Part shown: piece by piece, positions 2,809 to 29,273 of the stretch | Position numbering within the stretch: position 1 is the stretch's first letter | How the letters are laid out: every line of letters begins with the position of its first letter | Origin: Phycisphaera sp. | GTDB lineage: Bacteria; Planctomycetota; Phycisphaerae; Phycisphaerales; UBA1924 | Direction: 5' to 3' | Assembly: GCA_025916675.1 (NCBI GenBank) | Contig: CP098402.1 | Location: 2,227,205-2,291,204, forward strand | Length of the DNA stretch: 64,000 bases | Position numbers and translations under genes: made by a program | The notes under the pieces: generated by a model | The model's database searches: none | What the model was told of the DNA's origin: nothing | What the model saw: the letters and a program-made list of their open reading frames with translations, nothing else

Positions 2809-4047
2809 ATGCCCGCGACTGCCGAGCCCATCACGACCAGCGATGGTCGCTTGAATGTCCCGAACCACGTCATCATCCCGTTTATCGAGGGCGATGGCAC
2901 CGGGCCGGACATCTGGGCGGCTTCCGTGCGGGTGTTCGATGCCGCGGTTGAGAAGGCGTACGGCGGGGAGCGGAAGATCCACTGGCACGAGGTGCTTGCC
3001 GGTGGCAAGGCTCACGACAAGACGGGTGACTGGCTGCCCGACGCGACGCTGGATGCGTTTCGCGAGTACCTGGTGGGCATCAAGGGCCCGCTGACCACCC
3101 CCACAGGTGGGGGGATTCGTTCCATTAATGTTGCGCTCAGGCAGCAGCTTGATTTGTACACGTGCCTGCGCCCCGTGCGCTGGTTTACGGGCGTGCCCAG
3201 CCCGCTGAAGAACCCCGGCGCGACGGACATGGTGATCTTCCGTGAGAACACCGAGGACATTTATGCGGGCATCGAGTTCGAGGCGGGCAGCGACGATCTC
3301 GCGAAGTTCAAGGAAGGCTTTACGAAGACCTTTCCCGATCGCTGGAAGAAGGTACGCTTCCCCGACTCGGTGGGCATCGGGCTCAAGCCCGTGTCTCAGG
3401 AGGGCACCGAGCGCCTTGTGCGGGCGGCGATCCAGTACGCGATCGACAACGACCGGCCCTCGGTGACGCTGGTCCACAAGGGCAACATCATGAAGTTTAC
3501 CGAGGGCGCCTTCATGAAGTGGGGCTACGAAGTAGCGGCCGAGCACTTTGGGGCCAAGCCGCTGGATGGCGGGCCGTGGCACGAGTTCACCGCGCCCAAC
3601 GGCGAGAAGATTGTCATCAAGGACGTGATCGCCGACGCGTTTTTGCAGCAGATCCTGTTGCGGCCGGCCGACTACGAGGTGATCGCGACGATGAACCTGA
3701 ACGGCGATTACGTGAGCGACGCGCTGGCGGCGTGCGTGGGCGGCATCGGCATCGCGCCGGGGGCGAACATCAACTACGACACGGGGCACGCGATCTTCGA
3801 GGCCACGCACGGCACGGCCCCGAAGTACGCCGGCCAGGACAAGGTGAACCCGGGCAGCCTGATTCTGTCGGGCGAGCTGATGCTCCGCCACATGGGCTGG
3901 ACGGAGGCGGCCGACCTGGTCATCAAGGGCGTCGAGGGAGCCATCGGCGCGAAGACGGTGACGTACGACTTCGAGCGGTTGATGGATGGAGCGACGCTGC
4001 TGAAGTGCAGTGAGTTTGGTGAGGCGGTTGTCGAGAAGATGGGATGA
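2809..4047 (+). CDS. icd: Isocitrate dehydrogenase (NADP-dependent)
   Basis: Oxidative decarboxylation of isocitrate to 2-oxoglutarate in the TCA cycle. At 412 residues it matches bacterial homodimeric Icd. The substrate loop RSINVALRQ carries Ser105, equivalent to the regulatory phospho-serine of the E. coli enzyme. [17 protein letters not shown] is the cofactor loop with the Lys/Tyr pair typical of NADP preference. The ATG at 2809 is preceded by GGAG at 2797-2800; the reading frame extends upstream but without family similarity. Two copies of a short palindromic repeat follow the stop (4064-4090 and 4120-4144). Confidence 0.95.
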
Positions 4048-4063
4048 GAATGGGCCTCGCTCT

Positions 4064-4090
4064 GTCCGAGCCGCGTGCGTGAGCGCGTGG
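4064..4090 (+). repeat. Short dispersed palindromic repeat, copy A
   Basis: A 27-base element containing CCGAGCCGCG-N-GCGT-R-AGC followed by an imperfect complementary arm, able to fold as a small hairpin around a GTGA loop. It lies 17 bases after the icd stop. Copy B (4120-4144) is in inverted orientation and copy C lies at 23035-23061. Across the 25-base core, 21 positions are identical in all three copies. Confidence 0.6.
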
Positions 4091-4119
4091 CCTTCTGATG
4101 GGTTCGTTTCAATCTAAGG

Positions 4120-4144
4120 CCTCGAGCTTACGCTCGCGGCTCGG
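4120..4144 (-). repeat. Short dispersed palindromic repeat, copy B
   Basis: Reads on the minus strand as the same 25-base core as copies A and C. Here the arm positions that vary between copies (core positions 11 and 19) form an A-T pair, which supports conservation of the hairpin. It ends 12 bases before the ATG of the glycosyltransferase gene, so it sits in that gene's leader. Confidence 0.6.
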
Positions 4145-4156
4145 TTGGAGAGACTG

Positions 4157-5323
4157 ATGCGGCTGATGCTGTTCACCGACACGCTTGGCGATGTGAATGG
4201 CGTGAGCCGGTTCATTCGCAACATGGGGCACGAGTCGCTCAAGGCGGGATGCGAATTGCTGATCGCGACGTCGACACGGTTCGAGGTACCCGACGACCCA
4301 TGCTTCTACAACGTCGCGCCCAAGTTCGCAATGAAGATGCCCAAGTACGCCGAGCTGGACATGGTGATCCCGCCCAAGGGCGCGATGGTGAGGCGCGCAG
4401 AGGAGTTTGCGCCCGACGTGGTTCATGTCTCGACGCCGGGGTCGGTGGGCAAGGTGGGGCGTGACTTTGCCAAAAAGCGCGGCATCCCGATCGCGGGCGT
4501 GTACCACACCGATTTCCCGGCGTATATGGACCACCTGTTTAACGACGAGATGTATGGGGCGGTGACGGCCCAGTACATGAAGTTCTTCTACAAGCCGTTC
4601 AAGCTGATCCTCTCTCGCAGCGAGCAGTACATGGAGTCGCTCGAGAAGCTGGGCTTCTCGCGGGATCGCATGGCCAAGCTCGAGCCGGGCATCCAGCTCG
4701 ATGACTTCGATGCGAAGCACAAGGACGCGAGCGTGTGGGACGAGTATGGCCTGCCGCGAGATTCGGTGAAGGTGCTGTACGTGGGGCGGATCAGCACGGA
4801 GAAGAACCTGCCGATGCTGACGGGCATCTGGCCCCAGGTGCGCGAGCGTGCGAAGGCGGCGGGCGTGGATGCGCGGCTGGTGGTCGTGGGTGGCGGGCCA
4901 TACCTCGATGATATGAAATCGACGCTCCACGGGCACGGCGTTGTGTTCCCGGGCTTCAAGCATGCGACGGAACTGGCAACGCTGTACGCGTCGTCGGACA
5001 TGTTCGTGTTTCCATCGCTGACCGATACGCTGGGGCAGGTTGTGCTCGAGAGCCAGGCCAGCGGCATTCCGGTGATCGTGGCGGATCAGGGTGGGCCGAA
5101 GGAGGTCGTCGACGACGGCGTAACCGGCATGGTGCTGCCCGGCCACAAAACGCCTGCGTGGGTGGATGCGGTGGGCGACCTGGTGATCGACCACGACAAG
5201 CGCCAGGCGATGGGGGCGGCGGGAATCCCTTGGGCGCAGAAGTTCTCGATCTCGGCGAGCTTCGAGAAGTTCTGGGCGGCGCACGAGGCGCTCGTTCGTT
5301 CGCCCGCGGAGCAGCCCGCTTAG
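4157..5323 (+). CDS. GT4-family glycosyltransferase
   Basis: A 388-residue GT-B fold enzyme of the GT4 type. The N-terminal Rossmann half starts with a D-T-L-G-D-V-N-G-V-S-R loop typical of this family. The C-terminal half contains YVGRISTEKNL (nucleotide-sugar binding) and FPSLTDTLGQVVLESQASG, in which the conserved acidic E-x(7)-E region is partly substituted. It resembles mannosyl/sulfoquinovosyl-type transferases that act on glycolipids, but the sugar donor and acceptor cannot be read from the sequence. The start at 4157 follows GGAGAG at 4147-4152. It ends with a four-base overlap with the convergent panD gene. Confidence 0.85.
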   Translation: MRLMLFTDTLGDVNGVSRFIRNMGHESLKAGCELLIATSTRFEVPDDPCFYNVAPKFAMKMPKYAELDMVIPPKGAMVRRAEEFAPDVVHVSTPGSVGKVGRDFAKKRGIPIAGVYHTDFPAYMDHLFNDEMYGAVTAQYMKFFYKPFKLILSRSEQYMESLEKLGFSRDRMAKLEPGIQLDDFDAKHKDASVWDEYGLPRDSVKVLYVGRISTEKNLPMLTGIWPQVRERAKAAGVDARLVVVGGGPYLDDMKSTLHGHGVVFPGFKHATELATLYASSDMFVFPSLTDTLGQVVLESQASGIPVIVADQGGPKEVVDDGVTGMVLPGHKTPAWVDAVGDLVIDHDKRQAMGAAGIPWAQKFSISASFEKFWAAHEALVRSPAEQPA

Positions 5324-5688
5324 GGCCAGGGGTCGTAGGCGACGACGCGGTCGAGGGCGTTGCCTTCGCCCACAAGTGCCACCTGGGGGTGGTGGGCTTT
5401 GTACTCGGCCTCGTCCATGAAGGCGTAGTGCATGATGATCAGCTTGTCGCCGGGCTTGACCAGCAGGGCGGCGGCGCCGTTGACCTCGATGGCGCCGTCG
5501 TCGCCCAGGAAGACATAGGTCTCGAAGCGCTCGCCGTTGGTGGCGTTCGCGATCTCGACGGCGTCGCTGGCGCGGAGGCCGGTGGCCCGCAGCAGGCGGC
5601 GGTCGATGGTGATCGAGCCGACATAATCGGGCCGGGCAGCGGTGACGGCGGCCATATGGATCTTGCTGTGGAGGACTTTTCGGAGCAT
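5320..5688 (-). CDS. panD: Aspartate 1-decarboxylase proenzyme
   Basis: Makes beta-alanine for pantothenate and coenzyme A synthesis. The 122-residue proenzyme self-cleaves at Gly24-Ser25 (sequence Y-V-G-S-I-T), giving the pyruvoyl group on Ser25; this site and the N-terminal L-H-S-K-I-H-x-A-x-V-T motif are intact. The ALLVKPGDKLIIMHYAFM region is typical of the C-terminal part. It is convergent with the glycosyltransferase gene and shares its last four bases. No other pan genes are nearby. Confidence 0.95.
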   Translation of the reverse strand: MLRKVLHSKIHMAAVTAARPDYVGSITIDRRLLRATGLRASDAVEIANATNGERFETYVFLGDDGAIEVNGAAALLVKPGDKLIIMHYAFMDEAEYKAHHPQVALVGEGNALDRVVAYDPWP

Positions 5689-5820
5689 TGGAAGGGGATT
5701 GTACGAGGCGGGTTTGTCGGTTGCGAGCCGGCCGAACCTCGGCGGGCCAGCAATACTCTTATTGCCCCGTGCGTTAGGCCGCGAGGGCGCGGTGCGCCTG
5801 CACTACTGGAGATACCAACG

Positions 5821-7041
5821 ATGACGAGCCTCATGAGTAGGATTTTGATCGGGTGTGCGAGCGTGGCGTCGGCCCTTGCCGTGGTCCAGCCCGCGTTTGG
5901 CCAGTTTGGCGGTGGTGGCGGATTCGGCGGTGCCGATGGGCCGCAGGTTAACCGCGAGCAACTCGAGGACTACGCCGACATCCTGGGGTTGGACGCCGAC
6001 CAGCGCGAGATCGCCCAGATCATGCTTGAGGAGTACATCGACAGCGTGCAAACTTCGATGGACGAGGTCCGCGAGGCGATGCGGAACGCCAGGCAGGAAT
6101 TCGAGGAGACGCGTGATGGCTCGGCCTTCCAGAACGCTCGAGAGTTGAGCCAAGCCTCCAATGAGCGTGCCGCGACCCTCGAAAGCCAGCTCATGGGCGA
6201 CTTGCAGATGATGCTGACGCCCGAGCAGGCCGAGGCTTGGCCCAGGGTCGAGATGGCCCACCGCCGCGCGACGACGCTGCCCCGTGGGCTGATGAGCGGC
6301 GAGCGTGTGGACCTGTTCGAGATCGTGGACACGCTGGAACTCGACGGCGAGCCGGCTTCGGAAGCCTCGATGGTGCTGGCTGATTACGAGTTGGCTCTCG
6401 ATCGCGTGCTGATCGCACGGAATGAGATGTTTGAGGAGGGCCTGCAGATGTTCCGCGACCGGGACTTTGAGTCGCTGCAGGACCATTTCGAGAAGGCTCG
6501 CGACGCGAGTGTACGGGTGCGTGACACCCACCGCAACTTTGCGCGTCGCTTGCAAGCCGTGATTCCCGAAGAAAAGCTGCCCGCGATGCAGACCGCGGTG
6601 CGTCGGGCGAGCTTCCCCACCGTGTACCGCCAGAACCGGGCCGACCGGGCGATTGAGGCTGCGCGCGGGCTCGATGACCTGAGCGACGACCAGCGATCGC
6701 AGATCAACGGCATCGCCGAGTCGACCGCGCGCCGGATGGACCAGGTGAACCGCAAGCTGGCCGACACCATCGAGAGCAACGAGGTCAACATGAACCTGCG
6801 TGACATGATGCGCGGGGGGCGACGCGGCAACGAGGACGGCACGCGAGAGCTCTTCCGCGAGAAGCGGGATGCGGTCAACAAGACCGTGGAGCAGCTGAAG
6901 GCCGTGCTCACCGAGGAGCAGGCCGCCAAGCTCGACGCGGCCGTTGGTACCGATGAGGACGGCGAGGGCCGTGGAGATCGGGCCCGCGGGCAGCGTGGCG
7001 GCGACCGGCAGCCCCAGCGGACTCGACAGCGCGAGTTCTGA
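5821..7041 (+). CDS. Secreted helical protein with LTxxQ-type motifs, tandem paralog 1
   Basis: Function unknown. The 406-residue product has a Sec signal peptide (hydrophobic core about 8-25, likely cleavage after A-F-G), then a Gly-rich linker and long charged amphipathic helices. Short L-T-P-E-Q and L-T-E-E-Q motifs recall Spy/CpxP-type periplasmic proteins. A block FPTVYRQNRADRAIEAA near residues 263-279 recurs in the next two genes. The start at 5821 is supported by TGGAGA at 5807-5812 and by the signal peptide. The C-terminus is rich in Arg/Gly/Gln. A strong terminator follows. Confidence 0.7.
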   Translation: MTSLMSRILIGCASVASALAVVQPAFGQFGGGGGFGGADGPQVNREQLEDYADILGLDADQREIAQIMLEEYIDSVQTSMDEVREAMRNARQEFEETRDGSAFQNARELSQASNERAATLESQLMGDLQMMLTPEQAEAWPRVEMAHRRATTLPRGLMSGERVDLFEIVDTLELDGEPASEASMVLADYELALDRVLIARNEMFEEGLQMFRDRDFESLQDHFEKARDASVRVRDTHRNFARRLQAVIPEEKLPAMQTAVRRASFPTVYRQNRADRAIEAARGLDDLSDDQRSQINGIAESTARRMDQVNRKLADTIESNEVNMNLRDMMRGGRRGNEDGTRELFREKRDAVNKTVEQLKAVLTEEQAAKLDAAVGTDEDGEGRGDRARGQRGGDRQPQRTRQREF

Positions 7042-7082
7042 ATCGGGGGATTTCGGTAGACTGTGCGGGGTGACGGCATGGC

Positions 7083-7124
7083 CGGCGCGGCGCATCCGAA
7101 CGGATGGAACGCCGCGCCGTTTTT
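7083..7124 (+). terminator. Strong Rho-independent terminator
   Basis: A long hairpin with a 10-bp G+C stem (7083-7092 with 7110-7119), continued inward by a six-base complementary pair (93-98 with 101-106) after a three-base bulge, followed by five T. It separates tandem paralogs 1 and 2, so they need not be co-transcribed. Confidence 0.85.
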
Positions 7125-7178
7125 GTGATCCGGCTGTGTGGGCCGGTTCGCCCTTGGCGTTGTGCAGGAGGCCTCGCG

Positions 7179-8384
7179 ATGCGGACAACACTTGTTCTGG
7201 CGGCTGTTGGGCTGGGATTGTCGATGGGTGCCCCGGCTTTGGGGCAGCAGGTCGAGTCGGTCGTGGTCACCTCGTCAGCCTCGCCGGCCGGGCCGGGAAG
7301 CGGCCGTGCGTTGTCGCGAGATCGGGTGGAACGGATCGGCGAGGTTCTGGAACTCGACGAGCTCCAGCGCGAGGTCGCCATGGAACTCTTTAAGGAGGTC
7401 GCCGGCAAGCGGCAGGCGCTCGGTGACGCGATGCGGCAGAGCATCGAGAGCGCCCGCGAGCTGGCCGATGAGGGCGACTTCTCGGAGATGTTCACGCGCA
7501 TCAAAGAAGTCACCGGCTCGTACCAGGATTCGGTCGACGCGCTGGAGAGCACCTTCCTGCAAGACGTTCGGGCCATGCTTACGGGCGACCAGGAAGCGCT
7601 CTGGCCCAAGGCCGAACGGCTGCACCGGCGCGGGCAGCACATGGGCTCGCTCACCCGCTCGCAGGCGCGCGTGGATCTGGACGAGTTGGTGCGGGCACAG
7701 TTCGAGTCCGTGTATGCCCGGCAGGACGTGGCCGAGGTGCTGGACCGCTGGGCCGTGCAGGTGGACGGGCTGCTGGTGGAACGTGCGAGGAAGGCGGAGG
7801 ACATCGGCGGCGGTGCAGGATTCCAGGGCGGCATCGTCATGATCGGCGGCGGCGATGATCCGTACGAGGACCTTCGGGCCATCGACGCGCGGATCGTGTC
7901 GGCCAGCGAACAAGCCGTGCGCAACCTGAGCGGCGCGATCGAGGACAACTCGATCGAACAGGAGTGGATCCGCAAGTCGTTCGCGCGCGTGTACCGACAG
8001 ACCGATGGCGAGCGGCGGCTGGAAGCGGCGAACGCGCTTGAGAGCCTCACCACCGAGCAGAAGGAACAGCTCGACGCCGTGACCGAGCAGCACGGCCGCG
8101 ATGTCGGGACGGCCCGGGACCGGTGGGTGGCCGCCGAGAAGGAACGTGAGAAGGAAAACACGCTGCCGCCCGGGGTGATGGTGATGATCGACGGCCAGGA
8201 GCCCACGCCGAGCGACGAGGCCCGCAAGGCGGTCAAGGAACTCGACGAGCGGCTGGAAGCGAAGCTGGCCGCGATCCTGAGCGAGGACCAGTTGGCCGAG
8301 CTTCCTGCGGCCAGTGAGTCGTTCGACGAGGTGCGATTTAACCCAAGTGGGGGCACCCGTCGATCGATCCGGATCGGTGGATAG
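7179..8384 (+). CDS. Secreted helical protein with LTxxQ-type motifs, tandem paralog 2
   Basis: Function unknown; 401 residues. It has a signal peptide (cleavage probably after A-L-G), then alternating helices rich in Glu, Arg and Ala. L-T-T-E-Q, L-T-G-D-Q and L-S-E-D-Q motifs recur. The paralog block reads FARVYRQTDGERRLEAA. The most divergent of the three copies, it shares their order of elements. The ATG at 7179 follows CAGGAGG at 7165-7171. Confidence 0.7.
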   Translation: MRTTLVLAAVGLGLSMGAPALGQQVESVVVTSSASPAGPGSGRALSRDRVERIGEVLELDELQREVAMELFKEVAGKRQALGDAMRQSIESARELADEGDFSEMFTRIKEVTGSYQDSVDALESTFLQDVRAMLTGDQEALWPKAERLHRRGQHMGSLTRSQARVDLDELVRAQFESVYARQDVAEVLDRWAVQVDGLLVERARKAEDIGGGAGFQGGIVMIGGGDDPYEDLRAIDARIVSASEQAVRNLSGAIEDNSIEQEWIRKSFARVYRQTDGERRLEAANALESLTTEQKEQLDAVTEQHGRDVGTARDRWVAAEKEREKENTLPPGVMVMIDGQEPTPSDEARKAVKELDERLEAKLAAILSEDQLAELPAASESFDEVRFNPSGGTRRSIRIGG

Positions 8385-8541
8385 GCCGTAGAATGAACGA
8401 GAAGTGCGTCTGCTTCTGCCCGGGGGCGTGCAACTTCAGGGGCGAAGTCCCGAAATAAGTGCTAGTCTCGGAAGGGTTTCCGTGGGTTCCGATCACTCCA
8501 TTCGTGGGTGGCACCCGGCCGGGCAACAGGGGAAGAGCATC

Positions 8542-9780
8542 ATGCGAGCATTGGCGAGAAGCAGTCGCACGGGCGCGGGCTTTGTTTGGATTTTGATTTG
8601 TGCTTTATTGGGCACCCTGGCCTCTCCGGCGATGGCCCAGTTTGGCGGCATGGGGGGCATGGGTGACACCATGCAGTTCGCCATCAGCCGCGAATCAGTG
8701 GGCACGTACTCGGACATCCTGGGCTTCGACGAGTTGCAGCGTGAGACCGCCGAGATGCTGCATCGCGACTACATCGACAAGTTCAAGCGGGCCAGTGACA
8801 CCATCGAGGACGCGATGCGGTCGCTCCAGGAAGATGCGAGTAAGACCGGTGACTGGCAGAAGATGATGAAGCCCATGGGCAAGATCATGCTGGGGTTCAT
8901 CGATCGGTTGGAGGATCTGGAGGAGACGTTCTTTAACGATCTCGAGATGCTCGCGATCGAGCCCGCGCAGCAGGAGGCGTTTGTCCGGGTCGAGCGTGCC
9001 CGCCGTCGCGAGGAAGTGGAGATGGCCAGCCAGATGAGCGTGGTGAGCGGGGGGACGCTCGACCTGCACGAAATCGCCCGTGAGGTCGAGATTTCGGGCA
9101 ATGAGGCGGCTCGTGAGGCGTTGCTCGCCTATGAGGCGGAGATCGACCCTATCTACGCACGCTTGATCGACCGATCGACCGAGTTCTCACGTGGCTGGCT
9201 GGAGCGCATGCGGGACATGGACGAAGACAGCGAGAACATGGGCTTCGATGCGGAAGCCATGACGCAGATGCAGGAAGCGATGGCCGACCTGCGTGAGTTG
9301 GGCACCCAGGGCAAGGCCGTCAACGCCCGGTACGCTCGCCAGATCATGCAGATCCTGCCCGCCGAGAATCAGGCCAGGTGGGATCGCGAGGTCAAGCGTC
9401 GTTCGTGGCCGACCGTATACCGCCAGAGCAAGGCCGAGCGCCAGATCGAGGCCGCCGGCAAGCTCGATGACTTGTCGGCATCGCAAAGCGAGAGCTTGGA
9501 CGCCATCCGTTCGAGCTACCAGCGCGAGGTCGCGCCGGTGAACGAGCGGTGGGCCAAGGCGATCGACAGCCAGCAGGCCGAGGGCGAGCAGGGCTGGTGG
9601 GGCTTTGGGGGTGAAAACTCCGAGGCCGACGAAGCCGAGGAGGCCCGCAAGGAGATCGACGAGCGATTCATCGAGCGGGTGCGGTCGATCCTGACATCCG
9701 ATCAGATCGAACGCATGCCCGAGGTGGGCGACTCGGGATTTGATGCCGACGAGGTCTTGCGGCAGTTTGGTGGGGGCTGA
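8542..9780 (+). CDS. Secreted helical protein with LTxxQ-type motifs, tandem paralog 3
   Basis: Function unknown; 412 residues. A signal peptide (about 1-32, cleavage after A-M-A) leads to QFGG-M-G-G, almost the same mature N-terminus as paralog 1 (QFGGGGG). The paralog block is WPTVYRQSKAERQIEAAGKL, and a C-terminal L-T-S-D-Q motif is present. The reading frame extends further upstream, but the ATG at 8542 follows GGGGAAGAG and places the signal peptide at the N-terminus. Only six bases separate its stop from the TTG start of gspE, so it may be read with the secretion operon. That suggests, without proving, a link to the T2SS. Confidence 0.7.
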   Translation: MRALARSSRTGAGFVWILICALLGTLASPAMAQFGGMGGMGDTMQFAISRESVGTYSDILGFDELQRETAEMLHRDYIDKFKRASDTIEDAMRSLQEDASKTGDWQKMMKPMGKIMLGFIDRLEDLEETFFNDLEMLAIEPAQQEAFVRVERARRREEVEMASQMSVVSGGTLDLHEIAREVEISGNEAAREALLAYEAEIDPIYARLIDRSTEFSRGWLERMRDMDEDSENMGFDAEAMTQMQEAMADLRELGTQGKAVNARYARQIMQILPAENQARWDREVKRRSWPTVYRQSKAERQIEAAGKLDDLSASQSESLDAIRSSYQREVAPVNERWAKAIDSQQAEGEQGWWGFGGENSEADEAEEARKEIDERFIERVRSILTSDQIERMPEVGDSGFDADEVLRQFGGG

Positions 9781-22931: not shown

Positions 22932-22944
22932 ACACTCCGGATCA

Positions 22945-23008
22945 ATTGCCAACTGCCAAATCCCAATTGCCAGTGATGGCCTTGCACGGTGTATTGGCAA
23001 TAGGCAAT
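22945..23008. repeat. Inverted repeat of TTGCCA-type motifs
   Basis: Arms 22945-22959 and 22994-23008 are complementary at 12 of 15 positions. A further TTGCCA lies between them near 22966. The segment has noticeably more A+T than its surroundings and starts 14 bases after the lipoprotein gene. It could act as a transcript 3' end or be a repeat element. Confidence 0.4.
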
Positions 23009-23034
23009 GGGGCCGGAGCGGAGGCACGTCCTCC

Positions 23035-23061
23035 GTCCGAGCCGCGGGCGTGAGCACGCGG
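23035..23061 (+). repeat. Short dispersed palindromic repeat, copy C
   Basis: Third copy of the element also found after icd. The core CCGAGCCGCG-G-GCGTGAGC is followed by ACGCGG, giving an eight-base stem with one mismatch around GTGA. It lies about 100 bases beyond the T2SS operon. Confidence 0.6.
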
Positions 23062-23134
23062 ACCAACGCCCGAGCGTCCGTTGATGGGGTGAACGCGAAG
23101 GCCGCGAAGGGCTCGAACACCAAGATCCGACGAG

Positions 23135-23154
23135 CCCCTTTCGTGAGAAAGGGG
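23135..23154. terminator. Hairpin between convergent genes, possible terminator
   Basis: Perfect 8-bp stem (23135-23142 with 23147-23154) around a GTGA loop, with no T-run on either side. The location between convergent transcripts is right for a terminator, but without a T-run this is uncertain. Confidence 0.3.
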
Positions 23155-23271
23155 GCACCAACGCGCCGAAGCGCGATCGTCGCGCTCGACGCTCGGACCG
23201 GGCCCCAAACGGGGCGATCCGCCAGACGGCCGGGCCCGATCACCCGCCGCGTGGACCCACCCGCCGGACAC

Positions 23272-23418
23272 ATCGGCGGCGACGCGGAACGGATGGCCGC
23301 CGGGGCTCGACCCTTGGCCGGCCTCGCCCGACGACGTGCCGGCCGCGCGTGGCAAACGGGCGGCCGCGCTCGACGAATGGCCGGCCTCGTCCAGCGCGGC
23401 CGCCCGTTATCCGGGCGT
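23272..23418. repeat. Degenerate 21-bp tandem repeat
   Basis: About six to seven consecutive 21-base units can be laid out from 23272, with the core NNGGCCGGCCNCGC best conserved in units at 23314-23334, 23356-23376 and 23377-23397. On the minus strand one frame reads as Arg-rich heptads (R-G-R-P-F-x-x). Either this is decayed coding sequence for a heptad-repeat protein or a non-coding tandem repeat. Confidence 0.45.
23355..23408. repeat. Near-perfect 54-base inverted repeat
   Basis: Arms 23355-23370 and 23393-23408 are perfectly complementary over 16 bases. After one C-C mismatch the pairing continues for five more bases (23372-23376 with 23387-23391), leaving a 10-base loop that contains GGCCGGCC. 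No T-run follows. It is embedded in the 21-bp repeat array. Confidence 0.6.
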
Positions 23419-23566
23419 CGGGCGGGCTGTGAGCGGCTAGGCCGGGGCGAAAAACCGTGGTCGGAGGCCGGGAATCGGCGATTGGTGGACGCCCACGGGT
23501 GCGCACGGTCCGGGCCACCGGGGAGCCCGCTCGATGATGCCCGCGCTGCTGGCACTGGCTCGTGGG

Positions 23567-24994
23567 CTACTCGTCCTTCTCGGCCTCGGTCTCGGGCTTG
23601 GTCTTGGTTTCGACCTGGATCATCCTGACGAGCACCTCGTGGGCCTCCTGGCCGGCCCGGATGCCGATGGGCACCGAGGCGATCGCCGAGACGCACAGCA
23701 CCGAGGTCTCGAGGTGGTCCGCCAGGCGGCGGACGCGCAGGGCCAGCAGCATCTCGCTGTAGGTCTCCACCTCGCCCCGCTGGTGGGTCTGGATGGCGTA
23801 CTCGACGAGCGAGCCGATGTCCTTGGGGTAGAGGTTGGTTTTCAGCTTGAGGTCGGGCGCCTTGCACGTGACCACGATGAGCCGCTTGCGGACCGGGCCC
23901 CGGGCGGCATGCTCGTGCAACTCGGCGATGCGCACAGGCCCGCCCCCCAGGTGGATGACGCGATCGGTGGGGCTCGCCCCGTGGGGCAGGGTCGAGTGGC
24001 CGGCGATGATGACCAGGTCGCCCGGGCTCGCGCTGTCGATCAGGTCGAACGCCGCCTGCGTGGCGTTGTCAGCCTGGAGTAGGTCCTGGCACTCCGCTGT
24101 GCTGGACTCGCGCAGGGCCCCGTGGATGCGGCGCTTGGCGGCCAGGGTCGCCCTGAGGTCGGCTCGCCCCGGCGTCGGCCCGTTCGCGGTTTCGCTTGCG
24201 GCTTCGCTCGCGCCGGGATCGGGTTGGTCGTAGACCTTGGACCACTGCGACTCGTCGGGAAGGCTCAGCCCGATGTGGATGCGTTCGATCGGGCCGTCGT
24301 ACGCCCACGTGGAGAACGGCGGCTCGACGGACGTGGCCACCCGGACGCCCGGACGGACCTCCTTCATGCTCTCGTCCCATCGATGCCGCAGGGCCTTGTC
24401 GGCTGGGCTGTTGCCGCGGAACATCGGTGTGTCGTGGGCTCCCGGCGTGTACGCGAACATCTCTCCGGACTCGTGCACCCAGACCGTGCCGCGATGGAGG
24501 GTCCAGTCACCCAACCCGTCTAAGATGCGGCGCAGATCCGGCCGGACCGCCGGTGGGCGATCTCGCTCGAGCTGGTAAAAATCGTGCCTCTTCTGATTGG
24601 CCAACTCGTCGCGGAGTTGGGACACGGACATCATTCGGAGCCGGTCCTGAAGAGTGTACAACCGTTTGTAGTCGTTGCGGTCCCACTGTTCAATAGGTTT
24701 GTTGCCCACAGCGTCCTCGATCAGGCCCGGGACGACTTGCTTAAGCAGATCATCGCGTTGCTCACGGTCCATCTTCTCAGCCAAGTCGAGCCCCGGCCCT
24801 CTGCCGCCCCCAACGACTACCTCGATCGCGTCGTCGAGCCGCCCGTCGGCGACCGAGCCGGCCGCCTCTGCAACCCGATCCGTTTGCCGGACGCACGACT
24901 TCACAACGATCGTGCTCACGGCGGTGGCAGCGAGCCCAGCCCCGATCAGGAAGGCCACACCCGCTCCATCCAGCACCTTGTTCAGATCCGGCAT
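23567..24994 (-). CDS. Membrane-anchored protein with a caspase/CHAT-like His/Cys region
   Basis: 475 residues, no family recognised by name. One N-terminal transmembrane helix (about 11-33) is followed by a charged region and a Trp/Arg-rich middle part (about 100-260). The segment 326-381 shows a hydrophobic strand then A-G-H333-S, and 44 residues later a second strand R-L-I-V-V-T-C377-K. This is the His-Cys dyad spacing of clan CD peptidases (caspase/CHAT). The C-terminus is Lys/Glu-rich. ATG 24994 follows GGAGG. It lies 27 bases after the small membrane protein gene on the same strand. The peptidase assignment is inference. Confidence 0.55.
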   Translation of the reverse strand: MPDLNKVLDGAGVAFLIGAGLAATAVSTIVVKSCVRQTDRVAEAAGSVADGRLDDAIEVVVGGGRGPGLDLAEKMDREQRDDLLKQVVPGLIEDAVGNKPIEQWDRNDYKRLYTLQDRLRMMSVSQLRDELANQKRHDFYQLERDRPPAVRPDLRRILDGLGDWTLHRGTVWVHESGEMFAYTPGAHDTPMFRGNSPADKALRHRWDESMKEVRPGVRVATSVEPPFSTWAYDGPIERIHIGLSLPDESQWSKVYDQPDPGASEAASETANGPTPGRADLRATLAAKRRIHGALRESSTAECQDLLQADNATQAAFDLIDSASPGDLVIIAGHSTLPHGASPTDRVIHLGGGPVRIAELHEHAARGPVRKRLIVVTCKAPDLKLKTNLYPKDIGSLVEYAIQTHQRGEVETYSEMLLALRVRRLADHLETSVLCVSAIASVPIGIRAGQEAHEVLVRMIQVETKTKPETEAEKDE

Positions 24995-25021
24995 CCCAAC
25001 CTCCGATCGCAATGGAATGGA

Positions 25022-25351
25022 TCAGTCCACGATCCGGCGGAGCGAGAGCCCGTCGCCCTGGGGCGGGCCCAAGCGATAGGCAGCGTACTTCTGTAATTCC
25101 TGCATGATCGTGCGGGCCGAGACGCCCGAGGCGAACGCGAACACGCGATCGTCGCCGATCTTCTGTTGCAACGCGGCCGCCACGATCGCCGCGACGGCGA
25201 TGTTGAGCGCGGTCAGGAACCAGTACACCCGGCTCCGCAGCAGCCGGCGGAAGTCCGCCTCACTCTCTTTGGAGTGCTTGATCGACAACCTCATGGCTTC
25301 GAGACAGAAGCCACCGAGCGCCCCCCAGATCGCGACTTCGGCAAGAGTCAT
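25022..25351 (-). CDS. Small multi-helix membrane protein, partner of the CHAT-like gene
   Basis: 109 residues, family not recognised. Hydrophobic segments lie at about 4-22 and 42-62, with a third weaker one at about 70-86 ending in an F-A-S-G-V-S-A-R pattern. A charged stretch (H-S-K-E-S-E-A-D-F-R-R) separates the first two. The start is supported by AGGAAAGGA seven bases upstream. It is the first gene of a two-gene unit with the membrane-anchored His/Cys protein. The pair resembles conflict-system modules that join a small membrane protein to a peptidase-like partner, but this is a guess from architecture. Confidence 0.6.
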   Translation of the reverse strand: MTLAEVAIWGALGGFCLEAMRLSIKHSKESEADFRRLLRSRVYWFLTALNIAVAAIVAAALQQKIGDDRVFAFASGVSARTIMQELQKYAAYRLGPPQGDGLSLRRIVD

Positions 25352-25760
25352 CAGCCAATCCTTTCCTGTGCGAGAGCGATACGACAGACCACGTCATCAA
25401 GTTCCGACGCACCTTTACGACAATACTCGCTTCCCCACGCCTCTATCTCCACACAGACAAGAATTATGGTACAGAGGCGATCAGGCACGAAACCAAGAAC
25501 TAATTGCGCTAGTCGGGTGCCGTCCCGAAGATCTGATTTGAGATCGCCATATCATGTGCATTGGTGCCCGACAACGCGACCTGGACCCCGGCAGGATGCG
25601 TGGGTATTGCTGCAATGCAATCTTCGTGATATCTTGCCACTCCAACTCAAGCCGCCCTCACAACCCGCCGATCCCCTCCAAACGGGCCGCATGGTCGCGG
25701 CCCTCCGAACGCATCGCCGCCACGGCCCCCACGGACGGTGGACGGCTTAGGAGCATTGTT
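25352..25760. other. A+T-richer gene-free spacer between divergent genes
   Basis: About 400 bases with clearly lower G+C than the flanks, especially 25400-25560. It should hold promoters for the divergent small membrane protein gene (left) and the secreted-type gene at 25761 (right). No convincing reading frame, tRNA or mobile-element end was found. The composition change beside an accessory gene pair is consistent with an insertion boundary. Confidence 0.6.
25607..25635 (+). promoter_or_regulatory. Candidate sigma-70-type promoter for the 25761 gene
   Basis: TTGCTG at 25607-25612 and TATCTT at 25630-25635 are spaced by 17 bases, pointing to transcription start near 25642 and a leader of about 120 bases. 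Matches to consensus are only partial. Confidence 0.3.
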
Positions 25761-26426
25761 ATGAGCAATGGCATCGTGCCGCAAAGCAAGAACGACAGCA
25801 TCTCTTTCTTCGAGCAGCGCGCGCCCGTGTGGGTGACCAACGCGGCGCCGCTGGGGATCGATCCCATCGTTGCCGGGAATTTTCTGGCGCTCACCGACTC
25901 GGCCCGCACCGCGTACGACGCGGCCCAGATCGCCCAGCAGAACTCGCGTGGCGCCGTCTCGGGCCAGGACGCGGCCATCGCCGACATGAAGGGCCTGGGC
26001 GGCGACCTCATCAAGGGCATCCGCCTGAAGGCCGAGATGGACGGCGACCCCGAGCTGCTCGACCTGGCCCTGCTGCCCCAGCCCAAGACCCCCGAGCCCA
26101 TCCCCGCCCAGCCGGCCAGCAACCTGAGCTGGAGCCTGCAGACCAGCGGCGACCTGGAACTGAAGTGGGACGGCAGCCTCTCGAGCGGCACGACCTACGC
26201 CGTCGAGCGTTCGATCGTGCCCGTCGACGGCCCGCCCAGCGCGTTCGAGGCCATCGGCTTCGTGGGTGCGCTCGCCTTCACCGACAGCACCGTGCCCGCG
26301 GGCACCGCCATGGCGATCTACCAGGTCAAGGGCCAGAAGGGCGGGGTGTACACCCAGCCCAGCGCGCCCGCGCTCGTGCGCTTCGCGGCCGGTGGGAACT
26401 TCCAGTCGGCCCAGGCCGCGGCTTGA
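25761..26426 (+). CDS. Hypothetical protein with a fibronectin III-like C-terminal domain
   Basis: 221 residues, no function recognised. The N-terminal 100 residues are helical and Ala-rich, lack a signal peptide and include A-P-L-G-I-D-P-I-V-A-G-N-F. A Pro-rich hinge near 105-115 leads to a beta-rich domain (about 118-210) with S-W-S-L-Q-T-S-G-D-L-E-L-K-W and T-T-Y-A-V-E-R-S, resembling an FnIII fold. ATG 25761 follows TTAGGAG by seven bases; the upstream open frame has no such site. It is a single gene with convergent neighbours to the right. Confidence 0.6.
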   Translation: MSNGIVPQSKNDSISFFEQRAPVWVTNAAPLGIDPIVAGNFLALTDSARTAYDAAQIAQQNSRGAVSGQDAAIADMKGLGGDLIKGIRLKAEMDGDPELLDLALLPQPKTPEPIPAQPASNLSWSLQTSGDLELKWDGSLSSGTTYAVERSIVPVDGPPSAFEAIGFVGALAFTDSTVPAGTAMAIYQVKGQKGGVYTQPSAPALVRFAAGGNFQSAQAAA

Positions 26427-26455
26427 GAAGATCGCCCCCGCGCCTTCCACAACAA

Positions 26456-27508
26456 CTACGACAGCACCAACGCCTCGCCGGTCAGCCCCGGCCCGAACGC
26501 CAGCGCCATCGCTGGTGTTCTTATGTTTCCTTGGGATAACTTCTCGAGGATGAACAGGACCGTCGCGCTCGACATATTGCCGTGCTCGCGGAGGATGGTG
26601 GCGGAGGCCTCGGTGGCGCCCTCGGGCAGGCCGAGCGACCCGGCGACCGACTCGAGCACGCGGGGGCCGCCGGGGTGGATGGCCCATGACTTTACATCGT
26701 TGATCGTAAGATCCTCTTCGGCGAGCACGCCCCCGACCCAGGGCTTGACGTAGCGTGACAGGATGTCGGGGACGGCCGGGGAGAGGACCATCGAGAACCC
26801 CGCGGGGCCGATGGTCCAGCCCATGGCGCCCAGGCTATCGGGCAGCAGGATCGACGCGCTGCGGCGGAGCGTTGGGCCGTTCGCGCCTTCCTGATTGCCA
26901 ATGACGCACGCGGCCGCGCCGTCGGCGAAGAGGGCGTCGGCGACCGGGCAGCCATTGTCTTGCGAGGCCTGGATGTGCAGCGAGCAGAGTTCGACGCAGC
27001 ACACGAGCACGCGGGCGTCGGGCTCGGCGAGCGCGATCGCGCGTGCCGTGCGCAGGGCGTTGAGCGCGGCGTGGCACCCCATGAAGCCGATGTTGACGCG
27101 CTGTGTGGTCGTAGAAAGACCCAATGACCCGATGAGCGCGATGTCGACGCCGGGCGAGGCCAGGCCGGTGCAACTGGCGGTGACCAGGTGCGTGATGGCG
27201 GTGGCATCGGTGTTGGCATCGTGCAACGCGCTCTCGCACGCGCGATGGGCAAGCGGGGGCGCGAGCCTGTGGAACGTGCGCATGCGTTCGGCAGTATCAG
27301 GCACGGTGCCGTTGTAGAAGGCCTGCCGGGTGCCCTCGAAGATGGCCATCGATCGGTGCTCGATGCCGGTGTGCTCGTAGAGGTGGGCCATCGCGCGGGC
27401 CCGAGATGGCCGGACGCCGCCGATGGCCGCGACCATCTGGGCGGTGGCAGCCTGATCGAGCCGGCCCGTGGGCGTCGCGGTGCCGATGCCGAGCAGGCGG
27501 GCGCTCAC
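26456..27508 (-). CDS. Type III polyketide synthase (chalcone/stilbene synthase family)
   Basis: 350 residues. Condenses an acyl-CoA starter with malonyl-CoA units on a single active site. The catalytic triad is visible as Cys113 (V-T-A-S-C-T-G), His278 (W-A-I-H-P-G-G-P) and Asn311 (H-G-N-M-S-S-A-T), and the family loop A-F-G-P-G-L-T-G-E is near the C-terminus. The start is GTG 27508, overlapping the stop of the FAD oxidoreductase gene by four bases; an open frame extending upstream belongs to that gene's complement of frames. Product chemistry is probably an alkylresorcinol, alkylpyrone or similar lipid, judged from the operon. Confidence 0.88.
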   Translation of the reverse strand: MSARLLGIGTATPTGRLDQAATAQMVAAIGGVRPSRARAMAHLYEHTGIEHRSMAIFEGTRQAFYNGTVPDTAERMRTFHRLAPPLAHRACESALHDANTDATAITHLVTASCTGLASPGVDIALIGSLGLSTTTQRVNIGFMGCHAALNALRTARAIALAEPDARVLVCCVELCSLHIQASQDNGCPVADALFADGAAACVIGNQEGANGPTLRRSASILLPDSLGAMGWTIGPAGFSMVLSPAVPDILSRYVKPWVGGVLAEEDLTINDVKSWAIHPGGPRVLESVAGSLGLPEGATEASATILREHGNMSSATVLFILEKLSQGNIRTPAMALAFGPGLTGEALVLS

Positions 27509-28596
27509 GCGGGGCTCCGCGCGGCACCGCTCAGGGTGCCGCTGGCAAGGGAGCCCAGGCGCGGTGCCACGTTCGACATTCGGATCGCCATCGAGACGAG
27601 CCATGGCGACCGGACGGCTCTCGACACGGCACGGCATCGAGCGTGGCGTCTGGAAAGGAGGCGATGCAGCGTTCCCTCCCACGCCGACGCATCGGGACCA
27701 TGCTCGATGCAGGCGATCGCGTCATCGGCGATGCGTGATGCGGCCAGCAGCGCCCACGACATGCCCTCGCCGGTGAACGGCTCGACGTAGCCGGCGGCGT
27801 CGCCCACTCTGAGGATGCGCCCCTCCTGCGCGTGGCGGCGCCGCGACAGGGCGGGCGTGCCTCGCCAGGCACCATCGGGGACGTCGGCAGGATCGAGCCC
27901 AGCGCTGTGCCAGATGGTTCGTAGCGCGTTGATGGGTGATCCACTGCCGCGCACGAACCCCGGCGTCACGGCGGCGGCGAAGTCAACACGGCCGTCGGGC
28001 AACGCCACGCGCCCAAGATACCCACCGCACCCCACGGCCATGGTGAGTTCACCCGGTTCGCAACGGGAGCCTGCCGTGGTTAGGCCAAGGCCGATCCGGG
28101 TCGCCCGAGCGACCCGCGTTGGCGTTGCGCGTTGGCCTTGCAACCCGCTGGCGTCGATGATGACACCCGCGCGGATCTCGGTGCCGTCGTTCAGCGCCGC
28201 CGTGCCGTCGGATGATGCGCTGGCGCTCGTGCTCCAGCGCGTCTCGACACCCGCAACTTCTGCTGCCTCGGCGAGCGATCGGTCGAGCGACTCCCGAGAG
28301 ATGGAAGCAAAGCCGGGCAATCGGAGCGTCGTCCGTGTTTCCCTTGCCGCCAGCGTGAACGAATCGAGCGGCGATGAAGCGCCGAGGACGCGACCGAGAC
28401 CGGCGTCGTGCAGCGCGTCGATTCCCGTCGCACCAAGGCAGCAGCCGCAGACCTTCCAGCGGCCCTTGTGTGCCTTATCAACCATGAGCGTGCGGACGCC
28501 GCGTCGGGCGAGCGACAGCGCGGCCATCGAGCCGGCCGGGCCGGCCCCGATCACGACCGCGTCGTACCGTCCTTCGAGCCGTCGTCCCGTGACCAT
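27505..28596 (-). CDS. FAD-dependent oxidoreductase (hydroxylase / geranylgeranyl-reductase-like)
   Basis: 363 residues. The N-terminal dinucleotide fold has V-V-I-G-A-G-P-A-G-S (about 14-23), and the second FAD motif is V-G-D-A-A-G-Y-V-E-P-F-T-G-E-G. This matches the group-A flavin monooxygenase and reductase family. A K-V-C-G-C-C-L-G segment near 48-55 gives it a cysteine cluster like geranylgeranyl-reductase-type members. Between the methyltransferase and the polyketide synthase, it probably oxidises or reduces the polyketide. Start ATG 28596; it overlaps the methyltransferase by 46 bases. Confidence 0.82.
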   Translation of the reverse strand: MVTGRRLEGRYDAVVIGAGPAGSMAALSLARRGVRTLMVDKAHKGRWKVCGCCLGATGIDALHDAGLGRVLGASSPLDSFTLAARETRTTLRLPGFASISRESLDRSLAEAAEVAGVETRWSTSASASSDGTAALNDGTEIRAGVIIDASGLQGQRATPTRVARATRIGLGLTTAGSRCEPGELTMAVGCGGYLGRVALPDGRVDFAAAVTPGFVRGSGSPINALRTIWHSAGLDPADVPDGAWRGTPALSRRRHAQEGRILRVGDAAGYVEPFTGEGMSWALLAASRIADDAIACIEHGPDASAWEGTLHRLLSRRHARCRAVSRAVRSPWLVSMAIRMSNVAPRLGSLASGTLSGAARSPA

Positions 28597-29273
28597 CGGA
28601 TGAGCATACGCGCGGGGAACGCCCTGGCGACGGTCCAGCCCTTGCCCTCAGCAATTCCCCGTGCCATGGCCCGGGCTTCACCGATGCTCAGGGCGGCACG
28701 AGCGGATCGCAGGCCGTCGACGTGAACGACATGAGAACGCGTGACGAGCCTCGGAATGACAGCGGCCAGCGTGGTGCCCCACGGGCCACGCCGCAGGTCG
28801 CTGATGAGCACCATGCGGTGGGCGGCCGCGGCCATCTTGCCGAGCACGAGGCGGACCTGCTCGTCGGTCAGGTGGTGCAGGAACAGCGAGCACACCAGCA
28901 CGTCGGCTTGCGGAGCGTCTTCGTTCAAGATGTCGAGCTGATGGGCGGCCAGCGTGACGTTGGCCGAGCGTGCCCGATCGCGAGCGTGCTCGAGCGCGAC
29001 CCGGCTGATATCGCAGGCGGTGATATCGAATCGGACACCATCGCGACTCGCACGCTCAAGGAGCGCGACCGGCACGTCGGCGCTGCCGGTCGCGATGTCG
29101 ACGATGGTGAGCGGGCGGTCGAGCCGTGCCGCTTCACGCCGCAAGATCGGATACAGCACGCTTGGTGCGCGGCTCATGGCGTTCAGGCGTGCCAGGCCGC
29201 GCAGGGCGTGGGCGTGCTCGGCGGGGTCGAGCGTTGGGTCGTCCATCAATTCGCCGACGAGCACGCGGGGCAT
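28551..29273 (-). CDS. SAM-dependent methyltransferase
   Basis: 240 residues with the class I fold: motif I as V-D-I-A-T-G-S-A-D-V-P (about 58-68), an acidic residue after strand 2 in T-A-C-D-I-S, and V-L-V-C-S-L-F-L-H-H-L motif-IV region (about 125-135). The sequence resembles methyltransferases found beside type III polyketide synthases. The start at 29273 is the first ATG consistent with the family length; no strong ribosome site is visible, and ATG 29246 is an alternative. Likely substrate is the polyketide or phenolic product. Confidence 0.78.
   Translation of the reverse strand: MPRVLVGELMDDPTLDPAEHAHALRGLARLNAMSRAPSVLYPILRREAARLDRPLTIVDIATGSADVPVALLERASRDGVRFDITACDISRVALEHARDRARSANVTLAAHQLDILNEDAPQADVLVCSLFLHHLTDEQVRLVLGKMAAAAHRMVLISDLRRGPWGTTLAAVIPRLVTRSHVVHVDGLRSARAALSIGEARAMARGIAEGKGWTVARAFPARMLIRWSRDDGSKDGTTRS

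What the first reader, a model, noticed from the sequence alone, without database searches (positions are those of the whole stretch)
23567..25351. Two-gene membrane unit: small membrane protein plus anchored protein with a caspase/CHAT-like His/Cys dyad
The larger product (475 residues) has one N-terminal membrane helix and, at 326-381, a hydrophobic strand ending in G-H333, then 44 residues later a second strand ending in T-C377. This is the order and spacing seen in clan CD peptidases (caspases, CHAT). The upstream gene encodes a 109-residue multi-helix membrane protein, 27 bases away. An A+T-richer spacer adjoins it on one side and a repeat-rich gene-free stretch on the other. A small membrane effector with a peptidase-like partner is an arrangement seen in bacterial conflict and cell-death systems, and I do not recognise this pair. 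The protease and defence reading is inference.
Basis: partly seen in the sequence, partly recalled or inferred. Interest (0 to 1): 0.68.

Follow-up and report, generated by a model that had tools for sequence, protein, structure and literature searches.

The report
Orphan caspase-like membrane protein gene pair
A planctomycete-type bacterium carries, in a variable spot of its chromosome, a two-gene unit found in no other sequence searched: a small membrane protein and a membrane-anchored protein whose tail looks like a very distant caspase-type protease, possibly a defence or cell-death device, but none of that function is shown.

Summary
On the minus strand, 25022-25351 encodes 109 aa and 23567-24994 encodes 475 aa, 27 bp apart. 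The larger protein has one N-terminal membrane helix, H333 and C377. Codon scores support both genes. Both are orphans: no curated family, PDB sequence, plasmid or phage match, and no relative in about 1,000 genomes. The unit is recent cargo. Three same-genus relatives join the flanking genes directly; a fourth holds a KAP-NTPase/LRR gene (matching candidate-defence models) and a PilZ membrane protein there.

The clan CD reading survives but is not proven. The [strand]-GH[G/S]-x30-60-[strand]-C pattern occurs nowhere else in 210,172 background residues. A C14 profile scores above all 92 natural decoys, placing H333 on the catalytic His and C377 one column before the Cys. Two low-confidence single-sequence AlphaFold models retrieve mostly caspases, MALT1, metacaspases and TPR-CHAT (Z 4-5.5), with C377 at the catalytic Cys. 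Against it: no PF00656 or PF12770 match, Ser instead of the usual Gly after His, pLDDT about 40. Membership of C14 or CHAT is not claimed; 'a divergent caspase-like, membrane-tethered protein, perhaps acting on its small membrane partner' is. Protease activity, partnership and defence role remain inference.

The parts
25022..25351 (-). upstream gene: 109-aa small membrane protein (P0002), one clear (42-61) and one weak (6-24) hydrophobic helix; no homologue found
   Evidence: family searches; genome searches
23567..24994 (-). downstream gene: 475-aa protein (P0001), N-terminal membrane helix, middle region of unknown kind, C-terminal caspase-like domain
   Evidence: no homologue
24896..24964 (-). 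predicted N-terminal membrane helix, residues 11-33, followed by K/R residues (C-terminal part predicted cytoplasmic by the positive-inside rule)
   Evidence: hydropathy; sequence
23591..24301 (-). proposed clan-CD-like domain, residues 232-468
   Evidence: profile; models; structure searches
23996..23998 (-). candidate catalytic His333 (LVIIAGH-S)
   Evidence: sequence; aligned with the catalytic His of C14 and CHAT profiles
23864..23866 (-). candidate catalytic Cys377 (RLIVVTC)
   Evidence: sequence; in register with caspase-3 Cys163-type and TPR-CHAT Cys627 positions by the ends of the aligned ranges; one column off in the profile alignment
22932..26455 (.). variable insert between two conserved convergent genes; absent from G003, G004 and G005, replaced by other cargo in G001

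Best explanation
An accessory two-gene unit, gained recently at a variable chromosomal slot. The 475-aa product is tethered to the inner membrane by one N-terminal helix and carries in the cytoplasm a highly divergent caspase-like (clan CD type) cysteine-protease domain with a His333/Cys377 dyad. A middle region (about 70-230) probably senses or transmits a trigger. When triggered, the domain acts on a membrane-proximal substrate. The co-transcribed 109-aa membrane protein is the likeliest substrate or partner, and its activation would perturb the membrane, as in a conflict or abortive-infection module. Shown: the genes, their order, the insertion slot and their orphan status. Supported but not proven: the caspase-like fold and the dyad. 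Inferred: proteolysis, cytoplasmic orientation, partnership and the defence role.
For: Both ORFs carry coding signal. The dyad pattern is unique in 210,172 background residues; elsewhere in the fetched data it hits only the deliberately fetched C14/CHAT loci. hhalign to C14 proteins of relatives scores 22.5 against a natural-decoy maximum of 21.5 (0 of 92) and 1 of 300 shuffles; H333 falls on the catalytic His of C14 and also of CHAT. Foldseek with both single-sequence models ranks caspases and metacaspases at the top. VIA lists are mostly caspases, MALT1, metacaspases and TPR-CHAT, with C377 in register with the catalytic Cys, e.g. model 146 (=C377) with Cys627 of TPR-CHAT (dyad H585/C627 in PMC9729208). 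The spacing of 44 compares with 42 in TPR-CHAT. The unit is a gain at a slot that is empty in three relatives and holds a KAP-NTPase/LRR gene resembling QatA, PifA and PDC-S20 in a fourth. Single N-terminal membrane helix plus caspase domain is a known bacterial layout (46 sequences in PMC3501461).
Against: No supporting Pfam, NCBIfam, PADLOC or PHROGs match. The models are low-confidence (pLDDT 40-42) and Z never exceeds 5.5, a range the tool warns may mean only a common arrangement. The CHAT profile score is within reach of decoys (3 of 92). Ser replaces the Gly that follows the catalytic His in the C14/CHAT relatives fetched, and there is no Cys-x-Ser-Gly-like motif. No homologues exist to test conservation of the dyad or of the gene pair. 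The variable slot and the G001 cargo do not themselves prove a defence role.
Confidence: 0.4

Rival explanations
1. The C-terminal domain is an unrelated alpha/beta (Rossmann-like) domain; the GH...TC pattern is coincidental and single-sequence AlphaFold filled in a familiar fold. The protein would be an orphan membrane protein of another function, for example a sensor or an assembly factor.
For: No curated family matches at any usable level. Models have pLDDT about 40 and Z of 4-5.5, close to the level of unrelated rows such as 1tq8 and MutS. Ser follows the His, and C377 falls one column short in the profile alignment.
Against: Motif uniqueness, the profile score above natural decoys, and two models of different extent both retrieving caspase-type folds with the Cys in register. 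No alpha/beta-hydrolase appeared among the top rows although GHS superficially resembles a nucleophile elbow.
Confidence: 0.28
2. The fold is caspase-like but the domain is not an active protease: a pseudo-enzyme used as a scaffold or ligand-binding switch for the small membrane protein.
For: The active-site surroundings are atypical (H-S instead of H-G; VTCKAP instead of the usual xAC/xSC-x-SG). Planctomycete caspase homologues keep an intact dyad in only 64% of cases (PMC3501461).
Against: Both dyad residues themselves are present at the right spacing, which a decaying pseudo-enzyme would not need to keep.
Confidence: 0.2
3. An active membrane-tethered caspase-like protease with a housekeeping-type accessory role (processing or quality control of envelope proteins), unrelated to conflict.
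For: Operons of prokaryotic caspase homologues include many functions (PMC3501461), and neither protein matches a known defence model.
Against: The unit is strain-specific, has no detectable relatives, and sits in a slot with swapped cargo, unlike a housekeeping gene.
Confidence: 0.12

Closest known systems
Bacterial caspase homologues (metacaspases/orthocaspases, Pfam PF00656 Peptidase_C14), including single N-terminal-helix forms
   Same: Order and spacing of the His and Cys strands, predicted alternating helices and strands, N-terminal membrane helix before the domain (46 such sequences in PMC3501461)
   Different: No match to PF00656; Ser instead of Gly after the His; no CHSG-like motif; paired with a small membrane protein
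CHAT proteases (PF12770), e.g. TPR-CHAT/Csx29 of Craspase
   Same: H...C dyad with spacing 44 against 42 (H585/C627); model aligns C377 to C627
   Different: No PF12770 match; no TPR repeats recognised; no CRISPR neighbour recognised; membrane anchored
Bacterial gasdermin-protease operons
   Same: Two adjacent genes, a caspase-like protease and a membrane-acting partner (as reviewed in PMC9612521)
   Different: The partner is a 109-aa helical membrane protein, not a gasdermin; no cleavage shown
MALT1 paracaspase (structure only)
   Same: Best VIA matches of both models (Z 4.9 and 5.5)
   Different: Low-confidence models; 5-8% identity; no Ig or death domains recognised

Membership tests
Peptidase C14 (PF00656) | Match to the curated profile above its cut-off | tested here: not met
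   No PF00656 hit even at E 10; none in the whole own genome
Peptidase C14 (PF00656) | Catalytic His at the end of one core strand and Cys at the end of the next, about 40-50 residues apart | tested here: met
   H333 and C377 at the ends of predicted strands 327-334 and 371-378; H333 on the profile's His, C377 one column before its Cys; C377 in structural register
Peptidase C14 (PF00656) | His-Gly dipeptide | tested here: not met
   AGHS here; the motif reads GHG in the C14 relatives fetched that show it
Peptidase C14 (PF00656) | Caspase alpha/beta fold | tested here: inconclusive
   Caspases lead the lists but pLDDT is about 40 and Z at most 5.5
Peptidase C14 (PF00656) | Cys-dependent proteolysis | not testable with these tools
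   Needs biochemistry
CHAT (PF12770) | Match to the curated profile | tested here: not met
   No hit; own genome has none, although 5 of 6 same-genus relatives do
CHAT (PF12770) | Alignment with CHAT sequences of relatives above background | tested here: inconclusive
   Score 19.5; 3 of 92 natural decoys do as well; His aligned, alignment stops before the Cys
Bacterial gasdermin-protease system | A gasdermin gene next to the protease | tested here: not met
   Neighbour is 109 aa with one strong and one weak hydrophobic helix and no family match
Known anti-phage defence system (PADLOC) | Match to a PADLOC protein model | tested here: not met
   No hit for either protein

The most novel reading that the evidence does not exclude
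A previously undescribed two-component membrane device: a membrane-tethered, highly divergent caspase-like protease that activates a co-encoded small helical pore- or channel-like protein by cleavage (a gasdermin-like logic with an unrelated, tiny partner), used for abortive defence and swapped in and out of a dedicated slot.
Probability: 0.12. Interest if true: 0.75.

Novelty: new variant of a known kind. Interest (0 to 1): 0.38.

Why it matters
If the fold and activity are right, caspase-like domains extend beyond what curated models detect in bacteria, and the membrane-tethered pair offers a new protease plus small-membrane-protein logic to compare with gasdermin activation. The variable slot also gives a defined place to look for conflict genes in this planctomycete-type genus. 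If only the fold is right, it is one more divergent bacterial caspase homologue.

Tried and rejected
Homologue hunting failed everywhere: 60 relatives, 392 phylum genomes, 400 order genomes and 397 class genomes; genome contigs twice; viral contigs; plasmids and phages. The marginal hits were inspected and are chance: G292 is a HAMP-type histidine kinase (my reading); the repeated 267-336 match looks like an aminotransferase by its motif (my reading); the top-ranked class-level hits for the small protein look like vWA proteins (my reading); the P0004 hits read like an ABC transporter, a triosephosphate-isomerase-like protein, or the reverse frame of an acetyl-CoA synthetase (my reading). PDB sequence search gave only a nanobody at E about 0.4-1.

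An alpha/beta-hydrolase nucleophile elbow (GHS) was considered and rejected: the GxSxG spacing is broken (GHSTL) and no hydrolase of that fold appeared among the top structure-search rows. Rfam gave only sub-threshold miRNA/sRNA matches. The promoter scan found none and the terminator scan was at background. No target-site duplication or flanking inverted repeat clearly marks the insert ends. A test for small membrane neighbours beside C14/CHAT genes of relatives was inconclusive because most CHAT loci are cut. The 40-copy gene next door was tested as a carrier of such units and rejected: its 16 sampled copies have no recurring neighbour of this kind.

Full report
What is there. The window lies at 2,227,205-2,291,204 of a single 3.6-Mb contig. 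On the minus strand, a 109-aa gene (25022-25351) is followed after 27 bp by a 475-aa gene (23567-24994). Both have codon usage of real genes in this genome and score best in the annotated frame. The large protein has one hydrophobic helix at 11-33 followed by basic residues. The small one has a strong helix at 42-61 and a weak one at 6-24.

Surroundings. The gene on the left (ends 22931) and the type III polyketide synthase on the right (stop at 26456) are convergent and nearly abut in G003, G004 and G005. In this genome 3.5 kb lies between them, and in the closest relative, G001, there is about 6 kb of mostly different content in the same place. The G001 cargo is a PilZ-domain membrane protein and an 854-aa KAP-family NTPase with leucine-rich repeats. 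The latter matches the candidate-defence models PDC-S20 (7.7e-27), QatA (5.6e-18) and PifA (9.1e-17). The unit is therefore recent cargo in a variable slot. None of the six same-genus genomes has it.

Orphan status. Neither protein has a significant match in Pfam, NCBIfam, PADLOC or PHROGs. The large protein has none in PDB sequences or phages; neither has one in plasmids, viral contigs or genomes. All marginal hits checked look like chance.

Is the C-terminal part caspase-like? Four lines were used. First, a pattern of hydrophobic triplet, GH[G/S], 30-60 residues, hydrophobic triplet, Cys. In 494 open segments (210,172 residues) from the window and unselected loci only this protein has it. 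In the whole data set the other eight hits are all loci fetched on purpose as C14 or CHAT.

Second, profile comparison. C14 and CHAT proteins of relatives were collected, trimmed and compared with hhalign. Against C14, residues 232-468 score 22.5. None of 92 natural 237-aa pieces and 1 of 300 shuffles reach that. H333 falls on the catalytic His in both profiles. C377 falls one column before the catalytic Cys in C14, and the CHAT alignment stops before the Cys. Against CHAT the score is not distinctive (3 of 92 decoys).

Third, structure. Single-sequence AlphaFold of the whole protein and of residues 232-468 gave poor models (pLDDT 40 and 42). Both nevertheless have strands ending near H333 and C377 with a hairpin and a helix between. 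VIA-align gives MALT1, caspases, metacaspases and TPR-CHAT at Z 4-5.5. The ends of the aligned ranges put C377 on caspase-3 Cys163, caspase-7 Cys186 and TPR-CHAT Cys627, assuming no gap near the end. The caspase numbering is from my knowledge; TPR-CHAT H585/C627 is from PMC9729208. One yeast metacaspase row is off by two. Such Z values can arise from a common arrangement, so the fold stays 'likely', not shown.

Fourth, departures. The Gly after the catalytic His, present in the relatives fetched, is Ser here, and the residues after the Cys do not match C-x-S-G. This keeps an inactive or altered enzyme possible.

Mechanism. I favour a membrane-tethered caspase-like protease that responds to a signal and acts on a membrane-proximal substrate, most simply the co-transcribed small membrane protein. 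That logic is known from gasdermin-protease operons (PMC9612521), but the partner here is not a gasdermin. Single N-terminal-helix caspase homologues are known in bacteria, and planctomycetes keep the dyad in only 64% of homologues (PMC3501461). Estimated odds: caspase-like fold about 0.7; active protease about 0.45; conflict or defence role about 0.35; cleavage of the small protein about 0.15.

Verdict. Observation confirmed; interpretation partly supported. Not a member of C14 or CHAT by the tests run, but it probably works like one. A new variant of a known kind, of moderate interest.

Noticed in passing
window 25761-26426: A 221-aa gene (C-terminal half looks FN3-like by eye) with no Pfam match belongs to a family with 40 matches in this genome, 63 in G001, 44 in G004 and only 2 in G002. 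The 16 sampled copies are scattered single genes with no recurring close partner. A large unexplained lineage-specific expansion.
   Followed up: partly
window 23030-23080 and 23346-23417: The gene-free left spacer contains a short dispersed repeat; the spacer gives 47 matches in this genome and matches in all six same-genus relatives, some as close inverted pairs (REP/BIME-like), plus a 31-nt inverted repeat of which a form occurs in the same slot in G001.
   Followed up: partly
L060 (G001:C101), 3485-8326: Same slot in the closest relative carries a KAP-family NTPase with leucine-rich repeats (resembles QatA/PifA/PDC-S20) and a PilZ-domain membrane protein: a candidate conflict module in its own right.
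   Followed up: partly
window 26456-29273: Type III polyketide synthase, FAD-dependent oxidoreductase and methyltransferase form a compact cluster conserved in several genus members but largely deleted at the synthase in G001.
   Followed up: no
whole genome G000: This genome has no CHAT-domain match although five of its six same-genus relatives do, and no Peptidase_C14 match either.
   Followed up: no
window 5863-9780: Three consecutive genes of 352-392 aa look like tandem paralogues by eye.
   Followed up: no
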